The notes below the pieces were generated by a model that saw nothing but the letters and a program-made list of their open reading frames with translations, ran no database searches and had not been told where the DNA came from. Positions 51,331-53,328 of a stretch of 64,000 nucleotides of DNA are shown in pieces. Position 1 is the first letter of the stretch. Every line of letters starts with the position of its first letter. This DNA comes from Antedon mediterranea (taxonomy: Eukaryota; Echinodermata; Crinoidea; Comatulida; Antedonidae), in contig NC_092679.1 in assembly GCF_964355755.1 (NCBI RefSeq), positions 23,436,432 to 23,500,431 of the forward strand. The letters run 5' to 3'. The position numbers and the translations under genes are program-made.

Positions 51331-53328
51331 TTATTCGTCCTTAGGATTGTTGTACACGTACGTCAGACAACATTTGCCGCAGTATTGCCTGTCAAAATGG
51401 GAAGCCATGAAGACGCCGGCACCACATTCTTCGCTCGGACATTCACGTCGAAGACGAGTAATCTTGCCATTTTCATCAACCTGCAAGATGAAATTAGTGA
51501 AAGAATGACAACACAAAATTGGTAGATCTATATTTTAGGTTGTTTCTCGAAAACATAAAATTATTTAGGACTATAGCTCTGTCTACACAATCAAACTTTG
51601 TGACAAAACAATGTGCCCATATATGGACATAATGATGATACCCAGTATAAATATATATTTCAATGTCATATCAATACCATATTTGGGCACATCACACTGT
51701 TTTTTGTCAAACTGCATTTCGTGTATGATGTGGTTGCTCAGAATTCTTGTTTAGTTTCACTTTGTATTCAAAGGTGTCCTAAGAAAACATCATTGCAACT
51801 TTAATAATTGATCATATTTAGCAGATAGCTTGATGGACACTGATGTTTATTGTGCTGGGTAGGTGAATGTAGTCCTGGGAGAATCCACCTTTGAAGCCTT
51901 CCACCCAGGCTGAACTTTATTTTAAAACCTTTCACCCACCTACATATCATCTAGTTACCTGAAAGTAGTTTTTTTTTTACCTGAAAGTATGTTTAATTTT
52001 GTTCTCACCCACACCTGGATTTGTTTACATACATCCCTGGATATAATTTAAGTACAGTAGTGTAGTTTTAATGATTTAATGAAGTAGGGTGGTTGTTCTC
52101 CTTGGAACATAGCCTGTAGTACTAACGGCACTTTGAACTTTAAAAGGCTTGTTGAAGTTAAGTTGTAGGCTGTGTGCAACAACTTTATGATAGATGTCCC
52201 GAATTAAGCTTAGTTCCCACATGGACGCAACAACGTAGGCTTAAAGCAAATGAGTCGACCAATCACAAGAAACAAATAGACGGATACATCTTGATTGGTC
52301 GAATTGTTTTCGCCGCACTTATGTCCTTTTCTTGCGTCCAAGTAGGAACCAATAAATTTGTTAACCCTAGCAGCAACATATCTTACTTTGTAGAATTTCA
52401 GTACTGCAAGCTTAACCTTCTTCTTCTTGTGTTTGTTCTTTTTTGGGGTGGTGTAAGTCTTCTTCTTTCGTTTCTTGGCACCACCTCGCAGACGCAACAC
52501 TAAATGTAAAGTTGATTCCTTCTGGATGTTGTAATCTGAGAGTGTACGTCCATCCTCAAGTTGCTTTCCAGCAAAGATCAACCTCTGCTGATCTGGTGGA
52601 ATACCTGGAGAATCAAATGAAAAGAGTTTAGCTCTGAAGACTGAAAATCATTTTAACGTTGTTAGATATTTTAGTTTTCTTTAATTTGTTGCTCAGTTAA
52701 TAAAAAAAGGTAGTTTCATTGTTTTTCAAAGGTGTCCTAAGAAAGCATCATTGCAACATTTTACAAAAGTAGAATTATAAAAAAAAAAAAAAATTTTCTA
52801 CTCAATGAAATTGATCAGAAAATAAGATTCAAGAAAACTAAACCATTAATTTATACCTTCTTTATCTTGGATTTTGGCTTTTACATTTTCTATAGTATCA
52901 CTGGGTTCTACCTGAGTAATAAAAGAAAAAGTATTTCAAGATTTATATTATTATAAATATCGCGCACTTCTTTTATAAAACAAAAACCAAACTGAAGACA
53001 ATTAAAAGATAATTATTATTATTAAAGTGAAGATTGCATTTGCTCAGTAAAATAATAAAATTAGTTTCATCTTTTTCAAAGGTGTCCTAAGAAAACATCA
53101 TTGCAGGCACTTCACTTTAATTACTACTAGGCATTAATTTGCTAGGCCTACCTATAGCTAGGCAGCACCGGCTGGTTGCTTATTTAGAGAGTCACAACGT
53201 AACATACTAACTTGCTGCTAAACTATACATTATCCGCCGCGAGAAAAAAGGCATGGCGGTGGACTCCATTTAACACGTACCTCAAGGGTTATAGTTTTAC
53301 CAGTCAACGTTTTCACAAAAATCTGCAT
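51331..53328 (-). CDS. RPS27A: Ubiquitin-40S ribosomal protein S27a fusion (eS31)
   Basis: Four coding exons: 53328-53281, 52911-52857, 52604-52387, 51480-51331 (156 aa, the same as human). Residues 1-76 are ubiquitin ([16 protein letters not shown] ... LVLRLRGG). Then comes the basic eS31 tail ([20 protein letters not shown]) and the C-terminal zinc-finger part with CPSEECG and [11 protein letters not shown] deubiquitinase releases ubiquitin and the ribosomal protein; eS31 then joins the 40S subunit. A 5' non-coding exon (about 53489-53460, donor GGG|TGAG context) precedes the acceptor at 53349, and it starts with a pyrimidine tract of the TOP type. Each of the three coding introns carries one box C/D snoRNA in the sense orientation. 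The gene is divergent from TTC7, with only ~320 bp between starts. Confidence 0.97.
51574..51712. repeat. MITE, 'gctctgtctacac' family, copy 4 (RPS27A intron 3)
   Basis: TAGCTCTGTCTACACAATCA at the left; the core includes CCATATTTGGGCACATCACA. The right terminal repeat is cut short after TTGTCAAACT. It ends ~20 bp from the snoRNA at 51733. Confidence 0.8.
51733..51799 (-). ncRNA. Box C/D snoRNA in RPS27A intron 3
   Basis: The minus strand reads GTTGC stem, box C ATGATGT, guide TTTCTTAGGACACCT, D'-like TTGA, C'-like AGTGAAA, then box D CTGA and the closing GCAAC stem: 67 nt in all. The guide is complementary to a highly conserved 28S rRNA stretch (AGGTGTCCTAAG). If TTGA is box D', the fifth-nucleotide rule predicts 2'-O-methylation of the G in AGGTG. 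Intronic location in a ribosomal-protein host gene is typical. Two paralogs lie in introns 1 and 2. Confidence 0.88.
52206..52351. repeat. MITE family 2 (CCAAT-bearing), copy b (RPS27A intron 3)
   Basis: AAGCTTAGTTCCCACATGGA at the left, TTGCGTCCAAGTAGGAACCA at the right, with internal GACCAATCACAAG and TTGATTGGTCGA. Homologous to 19328-19452. Confidence 0.8.
52688..52757 (-). ncRNA. Box C/D snoRNA in RPS27A intron 2
   Basis: Same architecture as the intron 3 copy: GTTGC/GCAAC terminal stem, box C ATGATGC, identical guide TTCTTAGGACACCT, D' TTGA, C' ATGAAAC, box D CTGA. The regions between guide and box D have diverged (poly-U-like), so the guide and boxes are under selection. Confidence 0.88.
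53041..53105 (-). ncRNA. Box C/D snoRNA in RPS27A intron 1
   Basis: Box C ATGATGT, guide TTTCTTAGGACACCT, D' TTGA, C' GATGAAA, box D CTGA. The inner stem is TGC/GCA and an outer stem GTGAAG/CTTCAC (53115-53110 with 53032-53027) extends it. It is the third member of the family in this gene. It has lost part of the inner stem but gained the longer outer stem. Confidence 0.85.

What the first reader, a model, noticed from the sequence alone, without database searches (positions are those of the whole stretch)
51733..53105. Three paralogous box C/D snoRNAs, one in each coding intron of RPS27A
On the host strand, each intron holds box C (ATGATGT/C), an identical guide CTTAGGACACCT, a TTGA D' box, a C'-like box, box D CTGA and a terminal stem. 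Everything between the guide and box D has diverged, which argues for selection on the guide and boxes. The guide is complementary to the conserved 28S segment AGGTGTCCTAAG, predicting methylation of the G in AGGTG. One-per-intron duplication of a single guide in this ribosomal-protein gene is unusual as far as I know.
Basis: partly seen in the sequence, partly recalled or inferred. Interest (0 to 1): 0.78.

Follow-up and report, generated by a model that had tools for sequence, protein, structure and literature searches.

The report
Three SNORD58 snoRNAs in RPS27A introns
[quoted passage not shown] vertebrates arrange the same RNA family in the same way in another ribosomal-protein gene, so this is an ordinary, mildly interesting case of a guide RNA in a different host gene.

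Summary
On the minus strand, Rfam's SNORD58 model (RF00151) matches three places above its curated threshold: 51733-51798 (63 bits), 52688-52756 (48) and 53039-53106 (43.6). They lie one in each of the three coding introns of a complete RPS27A gene. The 12-nt guide CUUAGGACACCU is perfectly complementary to 28S rRNA copies in the same genome, and the D'+5 rule picks the last G of AGGUG, the human Gm4198-equivalent assigned to SNORD58A (PMC9696202). The copies are the only ones found genome-wide, and the RPL17 locus here has none. SNORD58 itself is duplicated within RPL17 in human (PMC8178906) and one per intron in chicken (introns 1, 4, 5, 6; PMC2653536), and sharing one host gene is the commonest arrangement of expressed multi-member C/D families in human. 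What differs is the host, RPS27A, which fits known snoRNA mobility (PMC3511168). Minor extras: a 12-bp external stem around the weak-stemmed intron-1 copy, and a dispersed hairpin repeat in intron 3. Expression and methylation were not tested.

The parts
51733..51798 (-). SNORD58 copy in RPS27A coding intron 3 (best copy, 66 nt)
   Evidence: RF00151 63 bits, E 1.3e-11
52688..52756 (-). SNORD58 copy in RPS27A coding intron 2 (69 nt)
   Evidence: RF00151 48 bits, E 2.1e-7
53039..53106 (-). SNORD58 copy in RPS27A coding intron 1 (68 nt), weak terminal stem
   Evidence: RF00151 43.6 bits, just above the 42-bit gathering score
53281..53328 (-). RPS27A coding exon 1 (ATG at 53328)
52857..52911 (-). 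RPS27A coding exon 2
52387..52604 (-). RPS27A coding exon 3
51331..51480 (-). RPS27A coding exon 4 (eS31/S27a part)
53021..53121 (-). 12-bp perfect external stem (53110-53121 / 53021-53032) enclosing the intron-1 snoRNA
   Evidence: longest-helix p 0.015 and duplex-energy p 0.009 against dinucleotide shuffles of the 40-nt flanks, one of three copies tested
51590..51715 (.). dispersed inverted-repeat (MITE-like) hairpin between the intron-3 snoRNA and the 3' splice site
   Evidence: at least 40 copies at about 80% identity in the genome; inverted arms 51611-51626/51677-51692

Best explanation
These are three functional-looking paralogues of the box C/D snoRNA SNORD58, produced by duplication within one host gene. 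They would be spliced out with the RPS27A introns, trimmed to the C/D core, and used by the standard C/D snoRNP (fibrillarin methyltransferase) to 2'-O-methylate the last G of AGGUG in 28S rRNA (human Gm4198-equivalent), possibly also the U just before it. Shown: sequence, boxes, family membership, host, splice frame, complementarity to the genome's own 28S. Inferred: transcription, processing, methylation, order of duplication, and the move from or to another host gene.
For: RF00151 above gathering score at all three sites. Three guide+box C occurrences in the whole genome, all here. Four 28S-like loci carry GCAGGTGTCCTAAGGCGAGCTCA, exactly complementary over 12 bp (duplex about -22 kcal/mol). 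Intact RPS27A frame across the introns. Conservation sits on box C, guide/D', C' and D while linkers and the rest of the introns are unrelated. Same family, target and one-per-intron layout in chicken RPL17 (PMC2653536); three members in human RPL17 (PMC8178906). SNORD58A - 28S Gm4198 assignment (PMC9696202).
Against: No RNA evidence. Two copies score only slightly above threshold, and box C departs from the consensus at its last base in all three. The intron-1 copy has only a 3-bp terminal stem, and the nucleotide before box D does not pair with the last base of box C in the I2 (C/A) and I3 (U/U) copies, so efficiency may differ among copies. No eukaryotic relatives could be compared.
Confidence: 0.93

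Rival explanations
1. Only one or two copies (the intron-3 copy most likely) are active; the others are decaying paralogues with intact guides.
For: Scores fall 63 > 48 > 43.6 bits; the intron-1 copy has a weak terminal stem; box and terminal-stem quality predict expression in vertebrates (PMC10234308).
Against: Guide, box C core, D', C' and D are identical in the three copies while linkers have changed freely; the intron-1 copy has a possibly compensating external stem.
Confidence: 0.25
2. The snoRNA sequences act mainly in cis on RPS27A splicing by pairing with neighbouring intron sequence, the guide function being secondary.
For: External stem in intron 1; intronic snoRNAs pairing with their adjacent introns to affect host splicing are reported in mammals (PMC10324135, title and abstract only).
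Against: What is conserved is the rRNA guide and the protein-binding boxes, not the flanks; no comparable short flanking stem in introns 2 and 3.
Confidence: 0.05
3. Chance matches, or a dispersed repeat containing a SNORD58-like sequence.
For: The host gene contains dispersed repeats, two of them in intron 3.
Against: Only three matches found in the genome, all sense-oriented, one per coding intron; E-values down to 1e-11.
Confidence: 0.01

Closest known systems
SNORD58A/B/C (U58) in human RPL17
   Same: Rfam family RF00151, same guide block, predicted target 28S Gm4198-equivalent, several copies in one ribosomal-protein host gene (PMC8178906, PMC9696202)
   Different: Host gene is RPS27A, not RPL17; box C last base differs from the Rfam consensus
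Chicken GGgCD61/GGgCD62
   Same: U58 homologues, 12-nt D' guide to adjacent 28S U3682 and G3683, one copy per intron (RPL17 introns 4, 5, 6 and 1; PMC2653536)
   Different: Host RPL17 plus a second gene (introns 4 and 5 of mRNA CR352619)
Arabidopsis SnoR10 (plant counterpart listed with U58 in PMC2653536)
   Same: D' guide to what that table treats as the equivalent large-subunit rRNA site; methylates tandem U2651 and G2652 from one guide (PMC8053127)
   Different: Sequence and genomic organisation not compared here

Membership tests
SNORD58 (RF00151) | Covariance-model score at or above the gathering threshold | tested here: met
   63, 48 and 43.6 bits against 42
SNORD58 (RF00151) | D' guide complementary to 28S AGGUGUCCUAAG | tested here: met
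   12-bp match to four 28S-like loci of the same genome
Box C/D snoRNA | Box C (RUGAUGA) and box D (CUGA) | tested here: met
   Box D exact in all; box C AUGAUGU/C, 6 of 7 positions
Box C/D snoRNA | Terminal stem bringing C and D together | tested here: met
   5 bp in I2 and I3; 3 bp plus a 12-bp external stem in I1
Box C/D snoRNA | Accumulates as a stable 60-90 nt RNA bound by fibrillarin, NOP56 and NOP58 | not testable with these tools
   No RNA data
SNORD58 (RF00151) | Directs 2'-O-methylation of the 28S G (human 4198) | not testable with these tools
   Needs RiboMeth-seq in this species
SNORD58 (RF00151) | Host gene RPL17 (the vertebrate situation; not defining for the family) | tested here: not met
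   RPL17 locus L014 has no Rfam snoRNA match and no guide sequence; all three copies are in RPS27A

The most novel reading that the evidence does not exclude
An independent parallel: outside vertebrates SNORD58 settled in a different ribosomal-protein gene, RPS27A, and again multiplied to one per coding intron, suggesting repeated selection for dosage of this one guide; within the set, the intron-1 copy may have moved to processing that depends on an external stem.
Probability: 0.25. Interest if true: 0.35.

Novelty: new member of a known kind. Interest (0 to 1): 0.2.

Why it matters
It supplies a clean extra data point on snoRNA mobility and copy number: the same guide family is present in several copies within a single ribosomal-protein gene in vertebrates and in this genome, but the gene differs. 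If this arose independently, it would hint that the 28S G4198-equivalent mark needs a high guide dose. It does not change what is known about snoRNA function.

Tried and rejected
A fourth SNORD58 copy elsewhere in the genome: none by family search (only 64 of 306,742 first-look candidates scored) or by pattern. A snoRNA in the RPS27A 5'UTR intron or other snoRNA families in the window: none above Rfam gathering scores. SNORD58 or a relic in this genome's RPL17: none. The mir-2160 match at 51609-51694: below threshold and inside a dispersed hairpin repeat, rejected as a miRNA. Other weak C/D family matches overlap the SNORD58 copies far below their thresholds. External stems for the intron-2 and intron-3 copies: not better than shuffles. 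My first 28S pattern failed because I began it with AAGG instead of CAGG; the corrected one matched. The full LSU rRNA family search failed technically. No paper reporting snoRNAs in RPS27A introns was found; the library lacks most subscription journals, so this is weak evidence of absence.

Full report
Check of the observation. The finding's region was read and both strands were scanned against all Rfam models. Three minus-strand matches to SNORD58 (RF00151) pass the curated 42-bit threshold: 51733-51798 (63 bits), 52688-52756 (48) and 53039-53106 (43.6). No other snoRNA family passes its threshold in the 64-kb window. The host is a full-length RPS27A (ubiquitin plus eS31): four coding exons on the minus strand give one open frame, [12 protein letters not shown]...YVYNNPKDE, with GT..AG introns at 53280-52912, 52856-52605 and 52386-51481; the S27a Pfam domain was found once in the genome, here. 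Each of the three coding introns holds one copy, in the host's sense.

Conservation. An alignment of the three copies shows 30 of 31 identical columns from the terminal stem/box C through the guide and D', then an identical 8-nt C' segment (UGAAACUA), then CUGAGCAA at box D; linkers and flanks are not alignable. The introns share little else.

Target. The guide CUUAGGACACCU pairs perfectly over 12 bp with AGGUGUCCUAAG in 28S-like loci of the same genome (about -22 kcal/mol). With D' read as UUGA, the fifth base upstream is C, facing the last G of AGGUG. This is, by conserved sequence, the site given for SNORD58A in human (28S Gm4198; PMC9696202); I matched human numbering through the family, not by aligning a human 28S record. 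In chicken the U58 homologues are predicted for both the U and the G next to it (PMC2653536), and for Arabidopsis SnoR10, listed as the plant counterpart in that table, one D' guide was shown to methylate the tandem U2651/G2652 (PMC8053127). A second mark on the preceding U is thus plausible here too (it follows if D' is read as UGAA); this is inference.

Copy number and host. Both the family search and an exact box C + guide pattern find only these three copies in the 354-Mb assembly. Withheld or gap stretches read N, so absence elsewhere is likely but not proven. RPL17, the vertebrate host, was located and its locus (L014, fetched) has no SNORD58, no guide and no other snoRNA match. So the family resides in RPS27A here. 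I found no report of snoRNAs in RPS27A introns in the papers available.

Novelty. For this very family it is documented: the three most expressed human members, SNORD58A/B/C, all lie in RPL17 (PMC8178906) and chicken has copies in RPL17 introns 1, 4, 5 and 6 plus two in another gene (PMC2653536). [quoted passage not shown] That snoRNAs move between broadly expressed host genes is established (PMC3511168). The case is therefore a new member of a known kind with a different host.

Extra details. snoRNA-to-3' splice site distances are 127, 83 and 252 nt for introns 1, 2 and 3. The long one in intron 3 contains a dispersed hairpin repeat at about 51590-51715 with at least 40 genome copies; without it the distance would be near 126 nt. 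The intron-1 copy, which has the weakest terminal stem, is flanked by a 12-bp perfect external stem (53110-53121/53021-53032; p about 0.01-0.02 before allowing for three copies tested). External stems matter for some intronic C/D snoRNAs (U74 is cited in PMC12205218; the primary Darzacq and Kiss 2000 paper was not available). This is suggestive only.

Limits. No RNA data and no eukaryotic relatives were available, so expression, methylation, the age of the duplications and the clade of the organism were not tested.

Noticed in passing
16009-16080 (+) and 20458-20531 (-): Two tRNA-Asp-like genes with anticodon ATC (loop ATATCAA) rather than the usual GTC. The first, with its 3' flank, belongs to a repeat with at least 40 copies at 98-99% identity over 161 bp, some in tandem about 364 bp apart: either an amplified tRNA unit or a tRNA-derived repeat.
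   Followed up: partly
51590-51715: Roughly 125-bp inverted-repeat MITE-like element in RPS27A intron 3; at least 40 copies at 78-82% identity genome-wide.
   Followed up: yes
52195-52365: A second dispersed element with terminal inverted repeats (TTAGTTCCCACATGGACGCAA.../TTCTTGCGTCCAAGTAGGAACCAA) in intron 3; about 40 weaker matches at 69-86% identity.
   Followed up: partly
17394-19067 (-), 24080-25780 (-), 5577-6479 (-), 3591-4541 (+): Long open frames: the two largest (556 and 565 aa) carry an immunoglobulin domain in the same position and may be paralogues, 5577-6479 has a partial Ig match, and 3591-4541 carries Link (Xlink) domains: an Ig/Link receptor-like cluster in the same window as RPS27A.
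   Followed up: no
L014 856-909 (+), upstream of RPL17: mir-423 model match, 34.4 bits, E 3e-4 but far below the 71-bit threshold; probably chance or a repeat.
   Followed up: no
L010-L013: The 28S target motif occurs at four separate loci on three contigs whose flanks differ; some look like rearranged or truncated 28S copies.
   Followed up: no
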